Positions 1-14,710 of a stretch of DNA of 64,000 nucleotides are shown in pieces. The DNA comes from Flavobacteriales bacterium TMED123. Its GTDB lineage: Bacteria; Bacteroidota; Bacteroidia; Flavobacteriales; BACL11. Position 1 is the stretch's first letter, and each line of letters begins with the position of its first letter. The DNA is taken from NCBI GenBank assembly GCA_002170165.1, contig NHFY01000062.1, positions 131,670 to 195,669 on the forward strand. The letters are read 5' to 3'. Position numbers and translations under genes: made by a program. Below the pieces are notes generated by a model. That model saw only the letters and a list, made by a program, of their open reading frames with translations, searched no databases and was not told the origin of the DNA.

Positions 1-2384
1 GTATGGCGACTGACACAGAAGATATCGATACCATTACTGCTACAATGGATGCGAGAATAGATACTCAATTATATCCTGGTGCTGTTGAGGTAAGTTGTTT
101 TGGCGCTAATGATGGAATGGCAATTGTTTCAACTTGGGGAGCACATGCACCTTATACTTATCAATGGTATGGTCCAAATAGTTACACTGCTACCAATGAT
201 AGTATTTATAATTTATTTGCAGGCACTTATTCCGTTACAATTAGTGATACCAATAATTGTTCAATTAATAGAAGTATAAATCTTACTCAGCCAGATGCGC
301 TTGTTTTTACAACATTTTCATCCTCAAATGAAACATGTTTAGGAGCTGCTAATGGCACAGTAAGTATTGATATACAAGGTGGTTCTTCCCCTTACACAGG
401 AATAGCAACTGACAATAATAGTGGTGTTGTTAGCACTCATTTAATGCAAAATGATACTGTTATCCCAGGAATTACTTCAGGTATTTTTACCATAAGTTTA
501 ACGGATGCTAACAACTGTAGTAGTGCATTAATTCTAGGAGGAAATGATCAGCAAATTATTGGGACAACAATTGCTACATATGCCAATATTGACCCTTCTT
601 CTGTAGTGCATTTAGACTGTTATGGTATTCCAACTGGTGTCGCTACTGTTCAAAACCCAATAAACCTATCAAATTACAGTTATAGCTGGCAAGATATTGC
701 TGGCAATAGCTATGGAACAGACACTATAGCAGAGAATCTACTGGCAGGAACTTATGTGCTTTTTGCTCATTATTCTGATTCTTTAGGAGCTTATCCTGGT
801 TGTACAACTACCGATACTGTTGTGCTCACACAACCAGATGAAATTCAAGTTAATCCAACTCTTATAAAAGATGCAGATTGTTTTGGAGGAAATGATGGTA
901 GAATTCAGACTCAAATTAGCGGTGGAACACGATTTCCTGGAGGACCAAATAGTTGGTACCAATTGCTCTGGAATTCTGGGCAAACAACAAGAAACATCAA
1001 TGGACTAACTGCAGGAACTTATATCATAAATATTACAGATGCAAATGGATGTTTGCAAGCAGATACATTTGCAGTTGCAGAGCCATTGGATTTAATTTCT
1101 ACAATTACTCCATCTGATTATAATGGTTATGGTATCAGTTGTTTTGGTGGAAATAATGGGGTCATCAATTTAACTATAGATCAAAATACTGGAACAGCTC
1201 CATACGTTTACACTTGGAGTAGTGGGCAATCATCTCTAAATATTTATAATCTTTCATCTGGACAGTATACTGTTACTATTACAGATGCCAAAGGTTGTAC
1301 TTACACCAATAGCACCAATTTAACTGAACCAGCTCAATTGCTACCATCTCCAGTAGTAAGTTCAGATTATTTTGGAGCTCATATTTCTTGTTTTGGTGCA
1401 GCTGATGGAGAGCTTACTGTTTCAACAATAGGAGGAGTGCAGCCATATGATATTTTATGGAATGATGGTTCAGTTAATTCTACTAATTCAGGTTTAATGT
1501 CGGGAATATATAGTGTTAGTGTTACAGATGAGAATGGGTGTATTGAGAATGCTTCTATCACATTGGTAGATCCTGTAGCTTTAAGTATTGATTTGAGTAT
1601 AAGAGATAGCCTTACCTATAATGTAAGTTGTTTTGGAATTTGTGATGGCTGGGCTTTAGCAACAGCTATTGGAGGTACAGGATCGTACACATACGCTTGG
1701 AGTGATGGTCAAACATCTGCTCTTGCTGAAGGGCTTTGTTCAGGATCGGCTTATACTATTACCGTTACAGATGCTAATGGTTGTGATCAAAGCAATACGA
1801 CCATAACATTTGCTCAGCCACCAGCTTTTGAAGCAGAAGTGTCAACTCCCAATTATTTCGGTCCGGCCAAACCACCACTTGATGTAACATTTGCTGATAG
1901 TACTTATTTGAGTACGGTTCACCCAATGCTATTTACATGGATTTGGCCTGATGGTGGTATTGAACCAATTGCATGGGAGTTTGGAGAAAGTGGTATTAAC
2001 ACATCTTATTCTTTTACTGATTTAGGAGAAAATAAAGTCAATTTAATAGTGCTTAACAGAACAACAGGATGTGCCGATACTATTGATTTTATTATTGATG
2101 TTCAGGGCTTAGAAGAAATCAATAATGTATTTACACCAAATGGAGATGGAGTGAATGATGTATTTGTATTTGAAAATAATGGCATGGATATTTTAAGTGT
2201 GATGATATTTAATCGTTGGGGTCAAAAGGTCTTTGAAACAGATTTAAGAAGTCCGCAATGGGATGGTAAAAATTTGAAAGGCAATGATGAATTGGCTGGC
2301 ACTTATTTTTATGTACTTACTGCCCAAGGAAAAGATGGTTATAGGTATGAGGAAAAAGGAGCTTTGATATTAATAAGGGAATAG
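1..2384 (+). CDS. SprB-repeat surface protein with type B T9SS signal (5' partial)
   Basis: This is the C-terminal part of a giant secreted, adhesin-like protein whose start lies before the window. The in-frame ATG at base 3 is not the start: aligned with the paralogues at 2509 and 10352 it falls in mid-repeat, where they read C-I-A-S/T-D-T. About seven SprB-type repeats of 75-95 residues are visible, each with a C-F-G-x-x-D/N-G core, a P-Y-x-Y-x-W core and a G-T-Y-x-V-x-x-T-D-x-N-G-C core. A PKD-like stretch follows. Residues ~707-793 are the gliding-motility-associated C-terminal domain (NVFTPNGDG, IFNRWG, WDG), the type B signal of the type IX secretion system. Cell-surface location is inferred from that signal. 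Ligand and role in gliding or adhesion cannot be read from the sequence. Confidence 0.9.
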   Translation, partial: MATDTEDIDTITATMDARIDTQLYPGAVEVSCFGANDGMAIVSTWGAHAPYTYQWYGPNSYTATNDSIYNLFAGTYSVTISDTNNCSINRSINLTQPDALVFTTFSSSNETCLGAANGTVSIDIQGGSSPYTGIATDNNSGVVSTHLMQNDTVIPGITSGIFTISLTDANNCSSALILGGNDQQIIGTTIATYANIDPSSVVHLDCYGIPTGVATVQNPINLSNYSYSWQDIAGNSYGTDTIAENLLAGTYVLFAHYSDSLGAYPGCTTTDTVVLTQPDEIQVNPTLIKDADCFGGNDGRIQTQISGGTRFPGGPNSWYQLLWNSGQTTRNINGLTAGTYIINITDANGCLQADTFAVAEPLDLISTITPSDYNGYGISCFGGNNGVINLTIDQNTGTAPYVYTWSSGQSSLNIYNLSSGQYTVTITDAKGCTYTNSTNLTEPAQLLPSPVVSSDYFGAHISCFGAADGELTVSTIGGVQPYDILWNDGSVNSTNSGLMSGIYSVSVTDENGCIENASITLVDPVALSIDLSIRDSLTYNVSCFGICDGWALATAIGGTGSYTYAWSDGQTSALAEGLCSGSAYTITVTDANGCDQSNTTITFAQPPAFEAEVSTPNYFGPAKPPLDVTFADSTYLSTVHPMLFTWIWPDGGIEPIAWEFGESGINTSYSFTDLGENKVNLIVLNRTTGCADTIDFIIDVQGLEEINNVFTPNGDGVNDVFVFENNGMDILSVMIFNRWGQKVFETDLRSPQWDGKNLKGNDELAGTYFYVLTAQGKDGYRYEEKGALILIRE

Positions 2385-2465
2385 TAAATAAAAGAGTGTA
2401 AAAATTATAATAGCGAAATGGCTAATTATCAACATATAACTGTTGCTTAGTTTGAGGGGTGTAAA

Positions 2466-2496
2466 TTTGCTGTTTTAATTTTAAGGTTATATTTGC
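2466..2496 (+). promoter_or_regulatory. Bacteroidota-type promoter of the giant protease/SprB gene
   Basis: A TTTG at 2466-2469 and TATATTTG at 2488-2495 match the -33 (TTTG) and -7 (TAnnTTTG) boxes of Bacteroidota promoters, with 18 bases between them. The ATG at 2509 lies 13 bases after the -7 box, so the leader would be only a few bases long. Inferred by pattern match. Confidence 0.6.
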
Positions 2497-2508
2497 AAAA
2501 AAACTGAT

Positions 2509-5500
2509 ATGAGTAATTTATATAAATCTGTAGTTTGTGCCTACATTTTTTTAACGGAGGTAAATCCCAAAAGCATAAAGGCTACTAGTAAAAGATTACT
2601 ATTTTTAGTAGTCTTTTTTTCCTTTATACTTTCACCTGTCAAACATCTTTATTCACATCATATAATAGAGCAGAGTTTTGCTATTAAAACCCAAGCTTCC
2701 TCACTTATTGTTGAAGCGAAAATTATTCAGAAGCAATCTTTTTGGAATGATGCCAATAATAGAATCTATACTGCAAATGAGATAGAAATATATAAAGTTT
2801 TTAAAGGTCAAGTCTCATCTAGAAGACATTATGTAATCACCCAAGGAGGGACTATTGGAAATGATAAATTAGAAGTTATTCCTTCTTTGCAGCTTACTGT
2901 TGGAGAGATAGGGGTTTTTATGTTGGAAAATTCAACTGCTCAATTATCATCAGTTAATGGAATAAAACTAGATCCTGTTGCAGAAGAGCAAGCTTTTTAT
3001 AGGTACGATGAAATTAGTGGAAAAGCATTATCGCCATTTGATAACTACCACACAGTTACTGCTCTACATAATGATATACAAGTTCAGGCTAATCAATTAT
3101 TTAATGAAATATATCCTTATACTTTTGAAAAGATTCAATTTCCTGAAAGTGTATTACCACCTCAGATAACAGCTATTAGTCCAACCAATTTAAATGGAGG
3201 TGTAGGAGATGTGTTAACAATTACTGGTACAGGATTTGGCGTTCAGTTACTTACTTCAAAAGTGATGTTGTATGATGCCGATGTTGGTCCAGGAGTTTTT
3301 TGGGAGGATGTTACTACATTTATAACTTGGACAGACACACTTATTCGATTAACTGTTCCTAATAGAGGGGATAATGGCAAAACAGTAGGAAGTGGAAATG
3401 TGCAAGTACAAACTCAATTAGGATCTAGCATCAGCTCACAAGTTTTGACTATCAATTATAATCATATAAATATATTGAATCAAGAAACCCAGCATATGGA
3501 TAAGAATGGTTTGGGTGGTTATACTTTTACTTTTAACAATGCCTTCGAATCTACTGTAGCTGGAAGTGAAGCTGCTTTTACAAGAGCATTAGAAAATTGG
3601 AGATGTGCTACTAGAGTAAATTGGGATGTTGATGCAATAAATACACCAATTGCATCAAACGCTAATGATGGAGTAAGTGTTGTCGCTTTTGTATCTACTA
3701 TTTCTTCTTTGGCTACGGCCTATAGTTGGTATTCCAATTGCGGAGGAAATAATTGGTATGTAACTGAAATGGATATTGAATTTAATACTGCTATTCCTTG
3801 GTATACCGATACCACTATGCCACTTGGAGGAAACGCTGATTTAGAGTCAGTAGCGTTACATGAACTAGGGCATTCTCATCAATTAACTCATGTTAGGGAT
3901 CAATCTGATCCACTTTATTGGTCTATAGGATTTGGCCAAGCAAAAAGAAGTTTATTACAGAACAATATTGATGGTGGTATCTATGTAAAAGATAAAAGCG
4001 TAAATACATCAATTTGTGGACAGCCTGCAATGATTATGTACCCACAATGCCCACAGCCACTTTCTTGCTCGGTGAGTATTACAAATGCACCTGCAATTGT
4101 ATGTAATGCTGATAGCACCATGATTTATGCTGATGTAACAATAACAGGAGGTGCTCCAGTTGTTTCCAATAATTTCAATTATTTGTTAAGTTTTAATGGA
4201 GCAAGTGTAGATAGTGTAGTTAATACTACAGACACTTCTATATTTTTTCCAATGCCAGTTGCTTTAAGCGGCAACTATTTGGTAACTGTAGTTGATGACT
4301 CTACTCAATGTATAGCTTCTGATTCTTTGACATTAAATATTCCTTTTCCACTTGCTTTAAGTACTTCTGTAAGTTATACCTCAGCATTAGGGGCTTGTGA
4401 TGGTAGTGGAGTAGCGAATATAGCAGGAGGTATACCACCATATTCTTATGAATGGAATGATGCATCAGCTAATGTTATTGCTACAACTACTTCAGTTTCT
4501 AATCTTTGTACAGGAACTTATACTGTTTGTGTTACCGATGCCTTAGGATGCCAAGTATGCGATATTATTCAAATTTTCTCAGGAGGTTGCACATTGTTCA
4601 CTAGTACAAACACCTCATTCTGTGATGGAGATTCAACAGCGATTACTGCCATAATGCTTGGAGGTGGAGGTGGTTTGGCTGCCAATGCTTTCGAATTTGA
4701 ATTATTAGATATGTCTGGAAATGTTGTAGCTGCCGATTATAATGCTGATAGTACATCAACTTTTTACATTAGTACAGCTGGAACATTTGTTTTGCAGGTT
4801 AGCAATACAGTTTCAGGATGTATAGCTTCGGACACTTTGAATTTTATTTCTTATCCTGCTGTTTCAGTTAGTATAACCTCAGGAAACACTTCTTTGCCTG
4901 GCGCTTGTGATGGCTATGCACAAATCAATACTTCATCAGGAACATCTCCATTTGCTTACCAGTGGGATACCTCAGGAGTGCTTTATTCAAATAATGCAAC
5001 TATTCAAAATATTTGTGAAGGATGGTATAATTATACCGTAACGGATGCCAATGGATGTAGCAGCTCCGATAGTATTGAAATTATCTTGGTTCCTTGTGAT
5101 TTAGACATCACATTAGCAGATCCTATATTGTGTCATGGTGATGATGATGCTAGAATAAAGATTAATGTGATAGGATCAGGTGCTGGTTCTATAGCTTACA
5201 CAGTTCGCTATTTGTACAGTTTATATACAGCTAATCCAACTCAATTGCAAGGATTTATTGCTTCAAATATTGATTCAGTTTTCTTTTCATCATTACCTCC
5301 AGCAACTTACTTTTTTACTGTATATGATTCTTCTTATGGGGCTTACTGTACAACTGATACTTTGGTGGTTACTGAACCCCCACCTCTGAATGCTTATGTT
5401 TCTGTTGCTAATGCAACAAACCTTTGGACCTGTGATGGAAATATGTTTATTGATTCTGTAAGTGGAGGCATATTCCCTTGGTCTAGTCAATGGTTTGATG

Positions 5501-8500
5501 CAAATAACAATTTAATTTCTCTCAATCCTTTTTTGAATAATGTTTGTTCAGGAACATATCAGTTAAATGTTACTGATGCAAATGGTTGTATTGATACTAC
5601 CTATCATTTTGTTCCAGCAGGTATTTCTTGTGATTCACTCGCGATAGCTTCAACGCAAACAAACAATGTACTTTGTAGTGGAGATAGTACAGGTTCAATA
5701 ATTATTTTTCCTGATTCTGTTGGTGTATATTCGGTTCCTCCTTTGAATTATATATTTACTAATATTTCAGGAGACACATTGCTTAATCAGACTAGTTCAT
5801 TTCCGCCTTTTGTTGGCGCACTTTTTAACCAGCCACCTGGTGACTATTTTGTTTCATTGACTGATTCTAATGGCTGTAATATTCAAGAGTCTTTTGAAAT
5901 ACTTGAAAATAATCAGCTTATTTTTGATTTAGGTGATGATGTTATAATTCCTTGTGGTTCGGATACAATTTTACAAGCAGGACAAGTTGTAGGTGGTGTT
6001 GGTAATTATAATTTTCTTTGGCAACCAACTAGTAGTACGGCAGACACAACCATTGCCTATCCAGGGACAACACCTGTAGATTATGTGTTGACCATTACTG
6101 ATAGTGTTGGATGTTCAGTAAAAGATACAGTAAATGTTTCTTGGGATCTATATGTCATTGAAATTAATTCAGTTTTGACGACCAATGTTTCTTGCTTTGG
6201 AGATTCAACAGGTTTAATTAGTGTTGTTGTAGATTCATCTACTGGTTTTGGCTCTTATTTTGCTGTTAATCAGTTTTCTGGTATATCCAATACTATTCCT
6301 TTGGACAGTTCTTTTGTTGGTTTACCATCAGATACTTTCATAATTAATATCGTTGATAGTATTGGTTGTTTATCTATTGATTCAACTGTGATTCTTACTC
6401 AGCCTTCTGTTCCTTTAACTACAACAGCAACAGATTCTTCTTTTACTTGTTATTTTGATAGTATTGGTTTGGGTATTATTACTGCTCTGGGAGGAACACC
6501 TTATACAGTTGGTGATCCTTATTCTTACGTATGGGAAGATATAAATGGAGTGGTTTGGAGTATTAATGATACTGTTATTGGATTGCCAGCAGGCACTTAC
6601 TATGCAACCACAACTGATAGTTTAGCTTGTTTTGTTATTGACACTATGCAAGTTTTAGAGCCAAGCAATTCGATAAATCTGGATTCCATAGCAATAGTTG
6701 ATGTGCATTGTAAATACGATTCAACAGGTAGCATATCAGTATCTTTCTCAGGAGGATTTATCCCTTACAATGTAATACTAATTTTAGGTTCTGATACCAT
6801 GCACACTCAAGGCTTAATCGATTCTGCAATTACAATAAGCGGTTTGCCTTATGGAAATTATGATTTATTAGTTTACGATTCTATCAACTGTATCAACGTT
6901 TATAATGCATTTATTAATGAGCCGCTAGATACTTTATCAAGTTCCATACATACCTTAACCGACGTTTCTTGTTGGGGTGACTCAACAGGGCAAGCTATAG
7001 TAACGGTAATTGGTGGTCAGTTCCCATACACTCATCTTTGGTCAAATGGAGAAACAAATGCCCTTAATGCTACATTAAATGCAGGATGGCATTATGTAAC
7101 CTCTACTGATGCTAATGGATGTATTATTGAAGATAGTGTGGAGATTTTCCATATAAACCCGCTTATTCAGGGTAATATAAACATTGTTCAGAATGTTTCT
7201 TGCTTCAATGGTTGTGATGGTATAGCAACTATTACTTCTGTTGGAGGTGTATTGCCACATAGATACAGTTGGAGTAATGGACAATTAGGAACTTTTCAAC
7301 CTGATACTACATATAATCTTTGTTATGGAAGTTATTATGTTATAATTGAGGATGCTGTTGGCTGTAGGGTCCTCGATAGTGTTTTTATTTCTCAACCGGA
7401 TGAGTTAAAGGCACAAGCATCTTTTATTGCACATATAACTTGTAATGGATTTGATAATGGAATCGCATATGCTACAGCAACAGGAGGTACACTACCTTAT
7501 TCTTTTGTATGGGATAGTATTAATGGTCAAGTAGGAGATTCCGCATTTAATTTAACCCCAGGAGTACATACGGTATATCTTACAGATGATAAAGGCTGTA
7601 CAGCTTTAGATACAGTAGTGATTACAGAGCCTGATGTTTTAGAAGTTGAAATTATTGATAGTCTAACGGTACTACCTTATTGTACTGGTGTTGCAACAGC
7701 TTCATTAACAGCAACAACATGGGGAGGTACAAAGCCATATAATTACTCATGGTCTTTAATTAGTGGTTCTGGATCACCTCTTAATCAGTTTGATTCTGTG
7801 GCCACAAATCTTTTGGCAGGAATATACTCTGTAATTGTGATGGACGAAAGAAATTGTATTGCATCTGATACAATGGATATTGATACGGTTACCAATACTA
7901 TGGATGGTTATGTAACGAGCGATAGTATATCCTGCTTTGGCGCTAATGACGGATCAGCTCAAGCAATTGTTTGGGGCGCGCATTCACCATATACTTACCA
8001 GTGGTTTGGGCCATTGGGTTATTCCAATACAGGTCAAGCAATAAATAGTTTATTATTTGGAACGTATTCCGTAATTGTGAATGACACAAACGATTGTGAG
8101 ATAACACGATTTGTAGATGTTAAACAACCAGATAAACTGGAATATACTACCTATCATGTAATAGATGAAAGCTGTGATGGGAGTTGTGATGGTCAAGTGT
8201 ATGTAGATATTTCTGGAGGAACAGGTCCTTTCCGTTATGAATGGAACAATTCCAATGGAAATTCAGTTTCATTTGTCGACAATAAATCTGTGATAAATGA
8301 TTCTATTATTCCTAATTTATGTTCTGCTGAGTATGACTTTTATATTACAGATACTAATAATTGCCAAGGTTATGTGCTTTGGGGAGGCAGATGGCAAGAA
8401 ATTGTATCGCCATTAGTAACTGTAGGTGGTTTAGTAGATGATCCTAATAGCTTAGTACATTCTAATTGTTTCAACACACCAAATGGAAGTGCTTCTGTTT

Positions 8501-10218
8501 TAAATCCGAATCCGAATTACTCTTATGTTTGGCAAAATATTCAGGCAATAGGTACAGTTGTTGATTCAGGAACTACAGCTTATAATTTGGCTGGAGGTAC
8601 CTATCAGTTACTTACTTATTATGGCGATTCAGCAGGCTATTATTTAGATTATTTGGGCTGTACAGATACTTCTGCTCCATTTACCATTAACCAACCACTG
8701 CAAATTACGCCTCAGTACAATATCGATCATGTAGATTGTTTTGATGATAATGATGGAAGAATTAGCATTACGAATATTTTTGGAGGTTTAGGTAATTTCT
8801 CTGCTGGTAATTTTGATGTGTTATGGAATCCGAATATGAGTACAAACAATACTATCAACAATTTGATTGCAGGAACTTATGCCGTTAGTATTACAGATAC
8901 TGCTGGTTGTGAGTTTGTTGATACTGTAATAATTAATGAGCCTGATCCACTTACTACAGATATTGCTGTTACTGATGTAATTTGTAATGGCGACCCAACA
9001 GGAACGGCTGTTGTAACGCCAGTAGGAGGAACAGCACCTTACATTGAAGATTGGAATGGTGAAAATCCAAATGCATTGGCTGTAGGTGTTTATCCAGTTA
9101 CTGTTACAGATGATAATGGTTGTCAAACAATAGATACTGCAATTATCAATCAACCTTTAGCTATTATAGCGCAAGCTATTGTTTCATCTGATTACAGTGG
9201 CGCTGATATCTCTTGTAATGGACTTAGTGATGGTGAAGCTGCTGTAAACCTATCAGGTGGAGGTTTTGGAAATTTAACTTATGATTGGCAGCCAGGAGGA
9301 CAAACTACGTCAACTGCAACAAATCTTTCTGCAGGCAATTACACTGTAACTGTTAGTGATGATAATGGCTGTACTGAAAGCGCTTCGGTTACATTAACAG
9401 ATCCTGCAGTATTGCTGGCTAATATCAGTTTTGATGAGAACATTACTTGTTTTAATGCTTGTGATGGTTGGGCAGAAGCTACTCCAACTGGCGGAACAGT
9501 TTTGAGTGTAAGCAATTATCAGTATTCTTGGACAAATTCACCTGGAGTTACTATTTCTGGACAAAGTAGAATAGAAGATTTATGTGCAGGAAATTCATTC
9601 TCAGTATTGGTAGAAGATGCTAACGGTTGTCAGGTAACAGCAAGCACACCGCTATTTACTGAGCCAGCAGAGATTATAGCCAATATTACAGCTTCTGATA
9701 CTGGAGCAGCTCATCCGCCATTTGCAGTTGAATTTATAAGCAGTACTATGCCGGTAGCCGCATACAATTACATTTATAATGTTAATCTTGATGGTGTTTC
9801 AGTTCAAGCTGGTTTGGATGTAAATAATCCTTTCTGGATTACTTTTACTAATCCTGGTGCAAATATGGTTACTTTCTTAGTGGAAGATCAGGTAAATGCT
9901 GGAGTGGGTTGTTATGATACCATTACAATGACCATTCATGTTCAAGGTGTAGATGTGCCAAATGTATTCACACCAAATGGTGATGGTACAAACGATTATT
10001 TTGTAGTAGACAATCACGGAATCGAAACTCTCAATATGCTGATATTCAACCGTTGGGGAGCTAAAGTTTATGAGTGGAATACAACCCAAACTGCTTGGGA
10101 TGGGACAGGCTTAGATGGAGAAGATGTAGCAGATGGTGTTTATTATTATATTCTTACTGCAGTGGGTGAAGATGGATACCCTTATGAAGAGAGAGGAGCC
10201 GTGACTTTAATACGATAA
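2509..10218 (+). CDS. Giant SprB-repeat protein with metzincin-like protease head and type B T9SS signal
   Basis: A 2569-residue secreted protein. The N terminus has a basic region and a hydrophobic segment (~28-45) as signal peptide, then a ~150-residue head typical of Bacteroidota matrixin-like proteins, and an IPT/TIG domain from ~217. A metzincin-like zinc site, HELGHSHQLTH, lies at 451-461 (HExxHxxxxxH; the usual Gly at position 8 is Gln). PAMIMYP near 506-512 could be the Met-turn. About twenty SprB-type repeats follow, many with CFGDSTG or CFGANDG cores. Residues ~2484-2569 form the gliding-motility-associated C-terminal domain (NVFTPNGDG, IFNRWG), a type B T9SS signal. A promoter precedes it and a hairpin terminator follows. 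The likely role is a large cell-surface adhesin with a protease domain. Whether the protease is active is unknown. Confidence 0.92.
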   Translation: MSNLYKSVVCAYIFLTEVNPKSIKATSKRLLFLVVFFSFILSPVKHLYSHHIIEQSFAIKTQASSLIVEAKIIQKQSFWNDANNRIYTANEIEIYKVFKGQVSSRRHYVITQGGTIGNDKLEVIPSLQLTVGEIGVFMLENSTAQLSSVNGIKLDPVAEEQAFYRYDEISGKALSPFDNYHTVTALHNDIQVQANQLFNEIYPYTFEKIQFPESVLPPQITAISPTNLNGGVGDVLTITGTGFGVQLLTSKVMLYDADVGPGVFWEDVTTFITWTDTLIRLTVPNRGDNGKTVGSGNVQVQTQLGSSISSQVLTINYNHINILNQETQHMDKNGLGGYTFTFNNAFESTVAGSEAAFTRALENWRCATRVNWDVDAINTPIASNANDGVSVVAFVSTISSLATAYSWYSNCGGNNWYVTEMDIEFNTAIPWYTDTTMPLGGNADLESVALHELGHSHQLTHVRDQSDPLYWSIGFGQAKRSLLQNNIDGGIYVKDKSVNTSICGQPAMIMYPQCPQPLSCSVSITNAPAIVCNADSTMIYADVTITGGAPVVSNNFNYLLSFNGASVDSVVNTTDTSIFFPMPVALSGNYLVTVVDDSTQCIASDSLTLNIPFPLALSTSVSYTSALGACDGSGVANIAGGIPPYSYEWNDASANVIATTTSVSNLCTGTYTVCVTDALGCQVCDIIQIFSGGCTLFTSTNTSFCDGDSTAITAIMLGGGGGLAANAFEFELLDMSGNVVAADYNADSTSTFYISTAGTFVLQVSNTVSGCIASDTLNFISYPAVSVSITSGNTSLPGACDGYAQINTSSGTSPFAYQWDTSGVLYSNNATIQNICEGWYNYTVTDANGCSSSDSIEIILVPCDLDITLADPILCHGDDDARIKINVIGSGAGSIAYTVRYLYSLYTANPTQLQGFIASNIDSVFFSSLPPATYFFTVYDSSYGAYCTTDTLVVTEPPPLNAYVSVANATNLWTCDGNMFIDSVSGGIFPWSSQWFDANNNLISLNPFLNNVCSGTYQLNVTDANGCIDTTYHFVPAGISCDSLAIASTQTNNVLCSGDSTGSIIIFPDSVGVYSVPPLNYIFTNISGDTLLNQTSSFPPFVGALFNQPPGDYFVSLTDSNGCNIQESFEILENNQLIFDLGDDVIIPCGSDTILQAGQVVGGVGNYNFLWQPTSSTADTTIAYPGTTPVDYVLTITDSVGCSVKDTVNVSWDLYVIEINSVLTTNVSCFGDSTGLISVVVDSSTGFGSYFAVNQFSGISNTIPLDSSFVGLPSDTFIINIVDSIGCLSIDSTVILTQPSVPLTTTATDSSFTCYFDSIGLGIITALGGTPYTVGDPYSYVWEDINGVVWSINDTVIGLPAGTYYATTTDSLACFVIDTMQVLEPSNSINLDSIAIVDVHCKYDSTGSISVSFSGGFIPYNVILILGSDTMHTQGLIDSAITISGLPYGNYDLLVYDSINCINVYNAFINEPLDTLSSSIHTLTDVSCWGDSTGQAIVTVIGGQFPYTHLWSNGETNALNATLNAGWHYVTSTDANGCIIEDSVEIFHINPLIQGNINIVQNVSCFNGCDGIATITSVGGVLPHRYSWSNGQLGTFQPDTTYNLCYGSYYVIIEDAVGCRVLDSVFISQPDELKAQASFIAHITCNGFDNGIAYATATGGTLPYSFVWDSINGQVGDSAFNLTPGVHTVYLTDDKGCTALDTVVITEPDVLEVEIIDSLTVLPYCTGVATASLTATTWGGTKPYNYSWSLISGSGSPLNQFDSVATNLLAGIYSVIVMDERNCIASDTMDIDTVTNTMDGYVTSDSISCFGANDGSAQAIVWGAHSPYTYQWFGPLGYSNTGQAINSLLFGTYSVIVNDTNDCEITRFVDVKQPDKLEYTTYHVIDESCDGSCDGQVYVDISGGTGPFRYEWNNSNGNSVSFVDNKSVINDSIIPNLCSAEYDFYITDTNNCQGYVLWGGRWQEIVSPLVTVGGLVDDPNSLVHSNCFNTPNGSASVLNPNPNYSYVWQNIQAIGTVVDSGTTAYNLAGGTYQLLTYYGDSAGYYLDYLGCTDTSAPFTINQPLQITPQYNIDHVDCFDDNDGRISITNIFGGLGNFSAGNFDVLWNPNMSTNNTINNLIAGTYAVSITDTAGCEFVDTVIINEPDPLTTDIAVTDVICNGDPTGTAVVTPVGGTAPYIEDWNGENPNALAVGVYPVTVTDDNGCQTIDTAIINQPLAIIAQAIVSSDYSGADISCNGLSDGEAAVNLSGGGFGNLTYDWQPGGQTTSTATNLSAGNYTVTVSDDNGCTESASVTLTDPAVLLANISFDENITCFNACDGWAEATPTGGTVLSVSNYQYSWTNSPGVTISGQSRIEDLCAGNSFSVLVEDANGCQVTASTPLFTEPAEIIANITASDTGAAHPPFAVEFISSTMPVAAYNYIYNVNLDGVSVQAGLDVNNPFWITFTNPGANMVTFLVEDQVNAGVGCYDTITMTIHVQGVDVPNVFTPNGDGTNDYFVVDNHGIETLNMLIFNRWGAKVYEWNTTQTAWDGTGLDGEDVADGVYYYILTAVGEDGYPYEERGAVTLIR

Positions 10219-10239
10219 AAAATTATGAAGATATTAACA

Positions 10240-10271
10240 AAAAGTCCTAATCCTATGATTAGGACTTTTTT
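10240..10271 (+). terminator. Intrinsic terminator after the 2569-aa SprB gene
   Basis: A perfect 10-bp stem, AGTCCTAATC (10243-10252) with GATTAGGACT (10257-10266), has a CTAT loop and is flanked by A and T runs, ending in T6. It separates the second giant gene from the third. Confidence 0.9.
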
Positions 10272-10303
10272 GTTTATGAGTGAATAAGATTTAGTTTTTA
10301 GGC

Positions 10304-10336
10304 TTTGTACACAAACTACATTTACCCTTATATTTG
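10304..10336 (+). promoter_or_regulatory. Bacteroidota-type promoter of the third giant gene
   Basis: TTTG at 10304-10307 and TATATTTG at 10329-10336 match the -33 and -7 boxes, 21 bases apart. The ATG at 10352 is 15 bases downstream. The -7 box is identical to that of the preceding giant gene. Together with the terminator at 10240-10271, this suggests the third gene has its own transcript. Confidence 0.6.
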
Positions 10337-10351
10337 TAAAAAATATAAAAT

Positions 10352-13300
10352 ATGATAAAACGCTTTACTTTTGTTTTTATATTTCTTTTCTCAATAGCGG
10401 CAAATGCACAAATCATTTTAACGCCAGATACTACTATTTGTGGAACTCAGAATTTAACACTTCAAGGTTTTTCAGGTGGCACAAATGGTAATTCGTTGTT
10501 TTTATCTGATGATGCTTGGAGTCCAGTTGTGAATATTGGCTTTCCATTTACTTTTTACGGAACAGCCTACTCAGATTTATTAATTTGTACTAATGGATTT
10601 TTAACTTTTGACTTAGCAAATGCTGGTCAAACATTAGCACCTTGGACAAATAATGCTCCACTTCCTACACCTGGTCAACCACCAGAGAATGCAATTTTAT
10701 TTCCATGGCATGATGTTGATCCTGGTGTTGGAGGGGTTATATATGAAGGAGTAAATGGTGTTGCTCCTAACAGGGTTTATGTTGTAACATTTTGTGCTAT
10801 ACCATTGTTTTCATGTAATAATATGTTAGTAACCCAACAAGTTAAATTGTATGAGGGATCCAATAAAATTGAAATGTATATCCAGGACAAGCCACTATGC
10901 ATTAGTTGGGCTGCAGGAACTGCTGTTCAAGGTTTAGTTAGTCCTGGTAGTGCTTTTACTGATATTGTAAATGACCCTACATTATTTTTACCTAGAAATT
11001 GGCCACTTACCTGGACTGCTACAAATGAAGGCTGGGAGTTTATTCCTAATGGGCCTAACTCTTATACTATTAATTCGATTCCCTTTCAACCTATTGTTGC
11101 TGGTAATGTAACTTGGTATGACAATAATTTAATTCAGATTGGAACAGGAGACTCTATAACCGTCTCTCCATTATCAACAACAACTTATTATGCAAGTGTG
11201 GATAGGTGTGACGGTGTTGTTGCGGTTTTTGACTCTATTGAAATAACATTAGGTTCTGCAATTACTTCTGAGCTTAATTCAACTAATGCTAGTTGTTTAG
11301 GGAATGACGCTACACTTACAGTTACACCCGATTTAAATACTACAACTCCACCATGGAATATTAATTTAATGGATTCCAATGGAAATGTGTTGCAAACGCA
11401 AAATAATGTTTGGAACAGCCATACATTTACAGGGCTTTTTCCAGGAACTTATATGGTAAATGTTATTGAGCCAATAACTGGTTGTTCGGGCTCAAATTCC
11501 TTAGTGGTAAAGCAAGTGGATATTGATTTATCACTTAATGCATATTCGGATAATGTAAGTTGTTTTGAAGGTAATGACGGATATATAGCTGTATATGCCG
11601 ATAGTGGTTATCCGCCATATCAGTATTTTATTGATGGAATATTAAATACCAATCCCCCACCATACGATACGGCATTTTTTGATAATTTGACAGCAGGAAC
11701 CTATGTTCTTTCTGTGTTAGATACTGTAAATTGCATGATGAGAGACACAGTAACAATTACTGATCCATCTTATCCTTTGCAAGCATTAGCAGCAAGCAAA
11801 TCCACAACTTGTTATGGGCAAGCAGAAGGAACAGCAGTTGTGCAAGGGGCTGGAGGAACACCTCCTTACAGTTACAATTGGTACAATTTTGGGCAAGTGT
11901 CCTTCTCGCTTAACGATTCTGTTTCTGGTTTATTTGCGGGCACCTATTATGCTAAAGTTACAGATGCTAATGGATGTGATACTCTTGCAAACATAAATGT
12001 AATTCAGACTCAAACCCCTCTTACTGCTGCTATTCAAATAATGGATGTAGCTTGTAAAGGAGATAGTAGTGGATATATAGTAGCTACTGCTGGAGGAAGT
12101 TATGCGCCTTATACTTATTATTGGCTTTCTGGTTCTGATACTTTAAGAAGTGCTAGTCACCCTGTAACTATTACTAGAGATAGTTTGAATAATTTGCCAG
12201 TTGGAAGCTATGAATTACATGTATATGATGCTTGGGGATGTATGGAGAGTTATTCTAATGTAGTAAGCGAACCAATTAATCCGCTTTCTTCTACATTGAA
12301 TAAAATACAAGATGTAGATTGCTATGGAGATAGTACAGGTGCTGTACAGCTTATTGTAAGTGGAGGCGTTCCTAATTATACTTATTTGTGGGACAATGGA
12401 GAAACTTCAATTGTGGCTACTAAGCTTACTGCTGGCTTGCATACAGTATGGATTACTGATGATTGGAATTGTACCATTGAAGATACCATTTCTATTAGTG
12501 AGAATTCACTGATTGAAGATAACATAATCATTATTCAAAATGTAAGTTGTTATGGCGGTTCAGATGGTGCTGTAGTTATTTCAAGTAGTGGAGGAATATT
12601 TCCACATTCTTATGATTGGAGTAACGGGCATTTGGGCACATCACAGCCAGATACCAATTCAGGATTGTTGTACGGATCTTATTATGTGCTTATTGAAGAT
12701 CAGTTGGGCTGTAGAGTAGTGGATAGTGTATTTATATCTGAGCCAGATGTTTTGGAAACTGAGGCTACAAAGTTAGCACATGTAACTTGCTATGACTTTA
12801 ATGATGGTATTGCAACTGCAATAGGGATAGGAGGAACGGTTCCTTATACTTTTAATTGGACGCCAGGAGGACAAACAGGAGATACCGTTTATGGTTTAAC
12901 TCCAGGAGTGCATACAGTTAATGTTATGGATGTAAAAGGATGTACAGCATCCGATACTGTTGTGATTATACAGCCATATCAATTGTTTGTAAATATTGTA
13001 GATAGCCTAATCATTCATCCTTATTGTACTGGCGTAAACTCTGCCGAGCTTACTGCTGTTACAAGTGGTGGAACGCCTGCATACAGCTACCTTTGGGATG
13101 ATAATGCAACCATTCCGCAAACTACTGCTACAGCTACTGCACTTGCTGCTGGTATTTATAGCTTAACGGTAACCGACAATAGGGGTTGTATTGCGACTGA
13201 CACAACAGATATCAGTGTTTACACCCATTCTATGGATGCAAAAATTGACAGCCAACTTTATGCTGGTGGTGTAGAAGTAAGTTGCTTTGGAGCAAATGAC

Positions 13301-14710
13301 GGAATTGCAATTGTTTCGGCTTGGGGAGCACATGCGCCTTATTCGTATCAGTGGTTTGGTCCTAATAATTATACCGCAACAAATGACAGTATCTATAACC
13401 TTTTTGCTGGAGCCTATTCTGTAAATATTGAAGACACCAATGGCTGTTTAATTACAAGATACATCAACCTTGCAGAGCCAGAATTATTACAGTTTACTTC
13501 CTATTTTTCAACAGATGAAACTTGTCTTGGTGCTTGTAATGGAACAGTTACTCTAGAGCTAACAGGAGGCGTAATGCCCTATTATGGTATTGCTACAGAA
13601 AACACAAATACGAATGTAATAACAGCCTCAATATTGGCCGATACCATTACATTCCCTAATATTTGTTCTGGAAATTACACCATAAGCATCACAGATACCA
13701 ATAACTGTCAAAGCAGTTTGATTCAAGGCGGAAATAATCAACAAACAATAGGCACAAGCATTACAACTGTGGCTAATATTGATGCTGCTAATGCTGTTCA
13801 TTTAGTATGCTACAATGTGCCAACTGGCGCAATTGCTGTATCAAATCCTATGGCAGCTCCTAACTATACTTATAGTTGGGAAGATTTGCTTGGAAACAGC
13901 TATGGAACAGACACCATTGCAGAGAATCTAGCAGCAGGAACTTATGTGCTTTTTGCACATTATTCCGATTCTTTGGGTGCTTATCCTGGATGTACAACAA
14001 CTGATAGTATAATGCTAAATCAGGCAAGTGAAATAATGATAAATGCAACTGTAAATGATGTCTTATGTTATGGGCAAAGTAGCGGAGGTATTACTACTGC
14101 TGTGAGTGGTGGAGCACCTGGCTATACTTATTTCTGGTATCCTAATAGCCAAACTACTGCTAATATCAATAATATATCTTCAGGCACTTATTCAGTTGAG
14201 GTTACCGACAATACCAATTGCTACAAAACCGATACTTTCAACCTTGCTGAGCCAAGCCTTTTGCAGGTAAGTATAGTACAAAATGGCAATCAGTTGCAAA
14301 GTACAGTAAGTGGTGGAACGCCTGGCTATATTTATCAATGGAGTAGCGGACAAACAGGGCTTAATATTATAGCTAACAATCCTGGGGTATATACACTAAC
14401 GGTAACAGATGATAATGGTTGTATTGTGGTTTCCAACACCATTATTATTACTGCTGTTGAGCTTGTTGAAGTTGAGGTATTCAGTATTTATCCTAATCCT
14501 TTTAAACAACAAACGCTTTTAGAGTTTGGCGATTTAAAGTCAGTGGTGTCAGTAAAATTATTAGATGTTTGTGGCAATGCTTTAGAAACTTACGATTTGA
14601 AAAATACTGAGCAATTTACCATTAAAAGAGGCACTAAAGCATCTGGTATTTATTTCTTGGAGGTGAAAATGGATGGTGAAACGCATCACAAAAGATTGGT
14701 TATTCAGTAG
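10352..14710 (+). CDS. SprB-repeat surface protein with type A T9SS signal
   Basis: A 1452-residue secreted protein. A clear signal peptide (1 to ~19, ending ANA-Q) leads to a globular head (~30-220) with a nidogen-like pattern (CTNGFLTF, APW, FPWHDVDPG). An Ig-like segment ending TTTYYASVDRCDG follows, then about thirteen SprB-type repeats. Repeats 5-12 are colinear with a block in the gene at 2509 and with the first gene. The last ~79 residues (from ~1374: FSIYPNPF, LLDVCGN, SGIYFLEV, KRLVIQ) are the type A T9SS sorting domain, unlike the type B domain on the two upstream paralogues. Type A substrates are normally processed and anchored by the PorU sortase. The likely role is a surface or secreted adhesin, with unknown ligand. 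Confidence 0.92.
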   Translation: MIKRFTFVFIFLFSIAANAQIILTPDTTICGTQNLTLQGFSGGTNGNSLFLSDDAWSPVVNIGFPFTFYGTAYSDLLICTNGFLTFDLANAGQTLAPWTNNAPLPTPGQPPENAILFPWHDVDPGVGGVIYEGVNGVAPNRVYVVTFCAIPLFSCNNMLVTQQVKLYEGSNKIEMYIQDKPLCISWAAGTAVQGLVSPGSAFTDIVNDPTLFLPRNWPLTWTATNEGWEFIPNGPNSYTINSIPFQPIVAGNVTWYDNNLIQIGTGDSITVSPLSTTTYYASVDRCDGVVAVFDSIEITLGSAITSELNSTNASCLGNDATLTVTPDLNTTTPPWNINLMDSNGNVLQTQNNVWNSHTFTGLFPGTYMVNVIEPITGCSGSNSLVVKQVDIDLSLNAYSDNVSCFEGNDGYIAVYADSGYPPYQYFIDGILNTNPPPYDTAFFDNLTAGTYVLSVLDTVNCMMRDTVTITDPSYPLQALAASKSTTCYGQAEGTAVVQGAGGTPPYSYNWYNFGQVSFSLNDSVSGLFAGTYYAKVTDANGCDTLANINVIQTQTPLTAAIQIMDVACKGDSSGYIVATAGGSYAPYTYYWLSGSDTLRSASHPVTITRDSLNNLPVGSYELHVYDAWGCMESYSNVVSEPINPLSSTLNKIQDVDCYGDSTGAVQLIVSGGVPNYTYLWDNGETSIVATKLTAGLHTVWITDDWNCTIEDTISISENSLIEDNIIIIQNVSCYGGSDGAVVISSSGGIFPHSYDWSNGHLGTSQPDTNSGLLYGSYYVLIEDQLGCRVVDSVFISEPDVLETEATKLAHVTCYDFNDGIATAIGIGGTVPYTFNWTPGGQTGDTVYGLTPGVHTVNVMDVKGCTASDTVVIIQPYQLFVNIVDSLIIHPYCTGVNSAELTAVTSGGTPAYSYLWDDNATIPQTTATATALAAGIYSLTVTDNRGCIATDTTDISVYTHSMDAKIDSQLYAGGVEVSCFGANDGIAIVSAWGAHAPYSYQWFGPNNYTATNDSIYNLFAGAYSVNIEDTNGCLITRYINLAEPELLQFTSYFSTDETCLGACNGTVTLELTGGVMPYYGIATENTNTNVITASILADTITFPNICSGNYTISITDTNNCQSSLIQGGNNQQTIGTSITTVANIDAANAVHLVCYNVPTGAIAVSNPMAAPNYTYSWEDLLGNSYGTDTIAENLAAGTYVLFAHYSDSLGAYPGCTTTDSIMLNQASEIMINATVNDVLCYGQSSGGITTAVSGGAPGYTYFWYPNSQTTANINNISSGTYSVEVTDNTNCYKTDTFNLAEPSLLQVSIVQNGNQLQSTVSGGTPGYIYQWSSGQTGLNIIANNPGVYTLTVTDDNGCIVVSNTIIITAVELVEVEVFSIYPNPFKQQTLLEFGDLKSVVSVKLLDVCGNALETYDLKNTEQFTIKRGTKASGIYFLEVKMDGETHHKRLVIQ

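What the first reader, a model, noticed from the sequence alone, without database searches (positions are those of the whole stretch)
3859..3891. Metzincin-like protease head fused to ~20 SprB repeats and a type B sorting domain
HELGHSHQLTH at residues 451-461 has the HExxHxxxxxH zinc spacing, but Gln replaces the Gly usual at position 8 of HExxHxxGxxH, and PAMIMYP may be the Met-turn. A protease at the distal tip of a very long surface fibre suggests a tethered enzyme attacking host or prey proteins or processing neighbouring fibres. Whether the altered site still works is open.
Basis: partly seen in the sequence, partly recalled or inferred. Interest (0 to 1): 0.6.

Follow-up and report, generated by a model that had tools for sequence, protein, structure and literature searches.

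The report
Tethered matrixin-like protease on SprB fibre
A marine Flavobacteriales bacterium carries a very long surface fibre whose outer end looks like a zinc protease of an unnamed, widespread Bacteroidota family, in which glutamine is the normal replacement for a "required" glycine; this copy and one sister also lack the nearly universal Met-turn methionine, so it is a natural test of what such enzymes really need.

Summary
In detail: an intact 2569-aa ORF (2509-10218, +) has HELGHSHQLTH at 3859-3891, about 21 SprB-like units and a T9SS type B sorting domain. The head is signal peptide, unnamed N-domain, IPT/TIG, then a matrixin-like domain (Pfam Peptidase_M10, 29.6 bits; cut-off 24). Two corrections. 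First, Gln at position 8 is not decay. In 94 Bacteroidota relatives it is the commonest residue (Q 66, L 13, G 10), while H/E/H/H are kept in 93-94 of 94. Second, PAMIMYP is not the Met-turn. The Met-turn column lies 8 residues after the third His, as in MMPs, and is Leu469 here (Met in 88/94, Leu in 6/94). Met-to-Leu arose about four times and SprB stalks about five times. The active-site region is under purifying selection. Closest known: matrixins (karilysin, MMPs) and type B SprB adhesins. Best reading: a cell-tethered, probably active zinc endopeptidase displayed by the type IX system, with remodelled zinc-site surroundings; catalysis is inferred (about 0.6). Targets (prey, host, neighbouring fibres) are untested. 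New variant of a known kind.

The parts
2509..10218 (+). Whole gene: signal peptide + N-domain + IPT/TIG + matrixin-like head + SprB stalk + type B sorting domain, 2569 aa
2509..2655 (+). N-terminal extension and hydrophobic signal peptide (about residues 1-49); start codon choice unproven but the orthologue L023 has the same long N-region
   Evidence: read by eye
2656..3108 (+). N-domain (about residues 50-200), no Pfam family; found in front of 79 of 94 family heads; possible prodomain (inference)
3160..3447 (+). IPT/TIG domain, residues 218-313; present before 93 of 94 family heads
3496..4083 (+). Matrixin-like metallopeptidase domain, residues 330-525, with conserved Cys366/411 and Cys503/520
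3859..3891 (+). Zinc motif HELGHSHQLTH, residues 451-461 (ligands H451, H455, H461; Glu452; Gln458 in place of Gly)
3907..3921 (+). True Met-turn position, DPLYW residues 467-471: Leu469 where 88 of 94 relatives have Met; Trp471 where 56 of 94 have Tyr
4024..4044 (+). PAMIMYP (residues 506-512), between Cys503 and Cys520; a different conserved column (M508 in 61 of 94), not the Met-turn
4096..9630 (+). Stalk of about 21 SprB-like repeat units, residues 530-2374
9952..10212 (+). T9SS type B C-terminal sorting domain, residues 2482-2568
2466..2495 (+). TTTG-N18-TATATTTG, Bacteroidota-type promoter-like site just upstream of the start (positional argument only; the looser pattern is not enriched in the window)
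10239..10270 (+). Intrinsic terminator-like hairpin after the gene (14 pairs, T tail)

Best explanation
The gene encodes a type IX-secreted, cell-surface-tethered zinc endopeptidase. Shown: the anatomy and kinship, i.e. a signal peptide region, an N-domain/IPT-TIG/matrixin-like head found throughout a Bacteroidota family, a SprB-repeat stalk and a type B sorting domain. Inferred: the sorting domain holds the C-terminus at a PorP/SprF barrel, the stalk carries the head away from the cell, and the head binds one zinc through His451, His455 and His461 and cleaves proteins with Glu452 as general base. Gln458 is the family's ordinary residue at the helix end. Leu469 takes the place of the Met-turn Met beneath the zinc, with tolerated or reduced activity. 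The likely use is local digestion of proteins on particles, prey or competitors while the product stays near the cell.
For: Motif and intact ORF. Pfam M10 above cut-off for the domain and hit in 57 of 59 relatives. A family profile finds MMP-16 (6e-11), matrilysin (about 1e-8) and karilysin (1.5e-5) in the PDB with the zinc motif and Met-turn aligned. Across 94 relatives H451 93, E452 93, H455 93, H461 94, although Gln is common and Leu at the Met-turn arose about four times: the catalytic residues stay under constraint. Active-site region dN 0.105/dS 1.17 against the sister species, lower dN than the stalk (0.25/1.2). T9SS core GldM and two PorP/SprF proteins are in the genome. Leu or Ser at this Met in MMP-2 had only minor effects (PMC1266349). 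Type B anchoring through PorP/SprF: PMC9143113.
Against: No structure: both AlphaFold jobs failed (pLDDT 27). The Met-turn Met is absent, and Met-to-Leu compromised protease C of Erwinia (PMC1266349). Trp replaces the commoner Tyr two residues on. No activity data exist for any family member found here. No PorP/SprF gene lies beside this gene. dS is near saturation, so the dN/dS values are rough. The 94-member sample was gathered with a profile seeded by this protein's relatives and may favour Gln.
Confidence: 0.6

Rival explanations
1. Pseudo-protease adhesin: the head keeps the matrixin fold, perhaps zinc, but works as a binding tip; the Met-turn Leu and neighbouring Trp reflect lost catalysis.
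For: Leu at a position called invariant in metzincins, Trp at Met+2; the large SprB fusions hold two of the four Leu lineages, and SprB-type proteins are adhesins (PMC9143113).
Against: All six Leu members keep Glu and the three His; true pseudo-proteases usually lose these (table in PMC11266112). Low dN at the active site. The Leu-SprB link is not significant once kinship is counted.
Confidence: 0.27
2. A maturation protease: the head trims itself or the neighbouring SprB fibres of the same cluster rather than foreign proteins.
For: It sits in a conserved cluster of SprB surface proteins, with the same flanking genes in the sister species.
Against: Most family members are short, stand-alone secreted proteins of 560-900 aa, those examined ending in type A signals, so the head does not need a fibre neighbour; no cleavage-site evidence.
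Confidence: 0.1
3. Chance motif in a beta-rich secreted protein.
For: No structure confirms the fold.
Against: Profile hits to MMPs and M10, motif conserved in 93-94 of 94 relatives, 0 of 100 shuffles.
Confidence: 0.02

Closest known systems
Matrixins (Pfam PF00413, MEROPS M10A: MMPs, karilysin)
   Same: Closest solved structures by sequence profile; HExxHxxxxxH; Met-turn column 8 residues after the third His in 84 of 94, as in MMP sequences aligned; conserved D/W segment and helix before the motif
   Different: Gln instead of Gly at position 8 in most members; Leu instead of Met at the Met-turn here; two conserved Cys pairs; N-domain and IPT/TIG in front; no cysteine-switch motif seen by eye
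SprB-type type B T9SS adhesins (Flavobacterium johnsoniae SprB)
   Same: SprB repeats, type B sorting domain, giant surface protein
   Different: Carries a metallopeptidase-like head; 2569 aa (about 0.27 MDa) instead of 669 kDa; no PorP/SprF gene beside it
NCBIfam NF041905 (MXAN_2677/2678) and NF038122 metalloproteases
   Same: Weak matches over the catalytic region in 45 and 44 of 59 relatives
   Different: Far below the curated cut-offs (about 20 vs 250 and 80 bits); different anchoring
Pappalysin-like T9SS peptidases (M43, e.g. mirolysin, cytophagalysin; also, by look, HEIGHYLGLNH at G000:C88)
   Same: Secreted Bacteroidota metzincins
   Different: Keep Gly at position 8; a different family

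Membership tests
Metzincin clan (strict signature) | HExxH...H: three His ligands and catalytic Glu | tested here: met
   Residues 451-461; 93-94 of 94 relatives
Metzincin clan (strict signature) | Gly at position 8 of HExxHxxGxxH | tested here: not met
   Gln458; Gln in 66 of 94 relatives
Metzincin clan (strict signature) | Met in the Met-turn | tested here: not met
   Leu469; Met in 88 of 94 relatives
Metzincin clan (strict signature) | Metzincin fold | tested here: inconclusive
   AlphaFold with two sequences, pLDDT 27-28
Pfam Peptidase_M10 (matrixin) | Score above the curated cut-off | tested here: inconclusive
   Domain alone 29.6 bits vs 24; whole protein 23.9
Pfam Peptidase_M10 (matrixin) | Closest solved homologues are matrixins | tested here: met
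   Family profile: MMP-16, matrilysin, karilysin
Pfam Peptidase_M10 (matrixin) | Proteolytic activity, zinc content | not testable with these tools
   Needs recombinant protein
T9SS type B SprB-repeat surface protein | SprB repeats | tested here: met
   13 Pfam stretches, 21 by local profile
T9SS type B SprB-repeat surface protein | Type B C-terminal signal | tested here: met
   TIGR04131 45.2 bits vs 35; CHU_C 71.7 vs 27
T9SS type B SprB-repeat surface protein | T9SS and a PorP/SprF shuttle in the genome | tested here: met
   GldM and two PorP_SprF proteins, not adjacent
T9SS type B SprB-repeat surface protein | Surface display and gliding role | not testable with these tools
   Uncultured genome

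The most novel reading that the evidence does not exclude
A Bacteroidota-wide metallopeptidase family has remodelled the metzincin zinc site (HQ in place of LG before the third His), and in some lineages, this one included, dispenses with the Met-turn methionine as well while staying catalytic. That would show two hallmark features of metzincins to be replaceable in nature.
Probability: 0.4. Interest if true: 0.6.

Novelty: new variant of a known kind. Interest (0 to 1): 0.5.

Why it matters
The Met-turn methionine and the motif glycine are usually treated as fixed in metzincins; a paper read here (PMC1266349) calls the methionine invariant in over 700 enzymes, and its role is still debated from mutants. 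This family supplies natural variants: dozens with Gln for Gly, a clade that has Gly nested among them, and about four independent Met-to-Leu changes, all with the zinc ligands kept. The repeated grafting of the same head onto SprB, PKD, Ig and beta-helix stalks also gives a clean system for asking what a bacterium gains by holding a protease on a long tether. No name for the family was found in Pfam, NCBIfam or the open papers searched.

Tried and rejected
Viral-contig scan for the motif: one hit, L132, a short ORF without any other resemblance, taken as chance. Plasmids and phages: no relatives. Literature: no paper held contains HELGHGHQLGH or related strings, nor SprB repeat with metalloprotease/peptidase; two main Met-turn/metzincin papers are not held. 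Co-variation of His457 with Gln458 is strong by counts (57/66 vs 2/10 with Gly) but not significant on independent pairs. A link between Met-to-Leu and SprB stalks: Fisher p 0.001, but only about two of four lineages, not significant on the tree. Rfam: nothing in the window.

Full report
What is there. The ORF 2509-10218 (+) is intact, 2569 aa. It reads, in order: a long N-terminal region with a hydrophobic signal peptide; an N-domain without a Pfam name; an IPT/TIG domain (aa 218-313, 23.5 bits in the whole protein); a Peptidase_M10 match (aa 354-485; 29.6 bits when the domain is scanned alone, cut-off 24; 23.9 in the whole protein); SprB repeats (13 Pfam stretches, 21 units by an iterated local profile, aa 530-2374); and a type B sorting domain (CHU_C, TIGR04131) at the C-terminus.

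Relatives. The same genus holds an orthologue (G003 = L023, JACNLP010000064.1, Flavobacteriales MAG NIOZ-UU86), 2707 aa with HELGHAHQLGH and the same stalk and flanking genes. In the same order and class the head occurs mostly in shorter proteins; those read in full end in type A sorting domains. A match at 1e-7 was found in 17 of 396 genomes of the order sample and 106 of 395 of the class sample, some of the weakest being other zinc proteases that share only the motif; 22 of 395 in the phylum sample at 1e-15, including other classes. Ninety-four distinct head domains were extracted and aligned. The IPT/TIG domain precedes 93 of the 94 and the N-domain 79.

The glycine question. At position 8 the family has Gln in 66, Leu in 13 and Gly in 10 of 94, while the first His, Glu and second His are kept in 93 and the third His in 94. 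So Gln is the ordinary state, not a lesion. On the tree Gln, Gly and other residues interchange (10 changes with three classes); one well-supported clade with Gly (L085, L086, L112) lies within a larger Gln group, though several forks around it are weak. The residue before it is His in 57 of 66 Gln members and in 2 of 10 Gly members; on phylogenetically independent pairs this is not significant.

The Met-turn. In MMPs the Met stands eight residues after the third His (read from the PDB alignments). The matching column here is residue 469. It is Met in 88 and Leu in 6 of 94; the spacing is eight in 84 of 94. The window protein and its orthologue have DPLYW. Leu arose about four times by parsimony (this genus; L057/L068; L090; L124), and all six Leu members keep the zinc ligands and Glu. 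According to the paper read (PMC1266349), Leu or Ser at this position changed MMP-2 activity little, while Leu, Ala or Ile in Erwinia protease C gave stable but compromised enzymes. Leu here is therefore compatible with activity but does not prove it.

Is it a matrixin? A profile of 59 family domains finds MMP-16 (6.3e-11), matrilysins (about 1e-8), other MMPs and karilysin (1.5e-5) among solved structures; 57 of 59 members match Pfam M10 at E 0.01; the NCBIfam matches of the window's domain stay far below their cut-offs. Because Gly and Met of the strict metzincin signature were tested and not met, I file the domain as matrixin-like rather than as a metzincin in the strict sense. This does not weaken the claim that it works like one.

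Selection. Between window and L023, Nei-Gojobori values are dN 0.105/dS 1.17 for residues 444-500, 0.17/1.34 for the whole catalytic domain, about 0.25/1.2 and 0.23/1.4 for the two halves of the stalk, and 0.12/1.21 for the C-terminal part. dS is near saturation, so the ratios are rough, but the active-site region is the best kept part along with the sorting end. This speaks against a freely drifting relic.

Architecture. SprB stalks of three or more units occur in 10 of the 94 and need about five changes on the tree. Examples are L068 (24 units, 2816 aa), L071, L072 and the L085 clade. Other heads sit on PKD, Ig-like or beta-helix stalks. So the protease-on-a-fibre plan has been built repeatedly. 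Among the large copies examined by Pfam, those with a recognised sorting domain have type A; the type B ending was seen only in the window's genus. Type B proteins are held by PorP/SprF barrels, apparently without loss of the C-terminal domain (PMC9143113), and type B substrates without a neighbouring shuttle gene can share one (PMC12618676). The genome has GldM and two PorP/SprF proteins, neither beside this gene. This places the head at the distal end by inference.

Surroundings. The gene is the third of four consecutive SprB-repeat genes, lying between genes that read as a UvrD-like helicase, ribF and atpD on one side and the ribosomal str operon on the other (gene names by eye). The stalks resemble each other but the heads differ. 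A terminator-like hairpin follows the gene, and TTTG-N18-TATATTTG precedes it, so it may be transcribed on its own.

Verdict. The most likely function is a surface-tethered zinc endopeptidase (about 0.6 for catalysis, about 0.9 for the matrixin-like identity of the domain); a pseudo-protease adhesin is the main rival. Targets are unknown.

Noticed in passing
L133:5688-16054 and window 3-14710: Cluster of four consecutive giant SprB-repeat genes (1450, 1975, 2569 and 1452 aa) with similar stalks, different N-terminal heads, three type B and one type A sorting domain; at least the last three are kept in order in the sister species.
   Followed up: partly
window 10352-14710: The downstream SprB protein ends in a type A sorting domain although its neighbours end in type B; its N-terminal head has no Pfam family at the threshold used.
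   Followed up: no
L070:8563-17685 (+): A 3041-aa family member whose zinc motif is lost (TLIGFTMLADH in the aligned columns) while the same genome holds an intact copy (L084): a pseudo-protease candidate.
   Followed up: no
L085, L086, L112: SprB-fused clade with canonical Gly in the motif (HELGHALGLGH and like), placed among Gln-bearing relatives: possible return from Gln to Gly.
   Followed up: partly
window 2466-2495 and 10304-10336: TTTG-N18/21-TATATTTG immediately upstream of two adjacent SprB genes; the looser pattern is not enriched in the window as a whole.
   Followed up: partly
G957:C5:10726-11205, G1049:C14:34191-34691: Distant family heads in ORFs of 3314 and 3384 aa outside the window's class.
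   Followed up: no
family alignment, residues 503-520: Second conserved Met column (M508 in 61 of 94) inside a conserved Cys pair at the end of the domain; role unknown.
   Followed up: no
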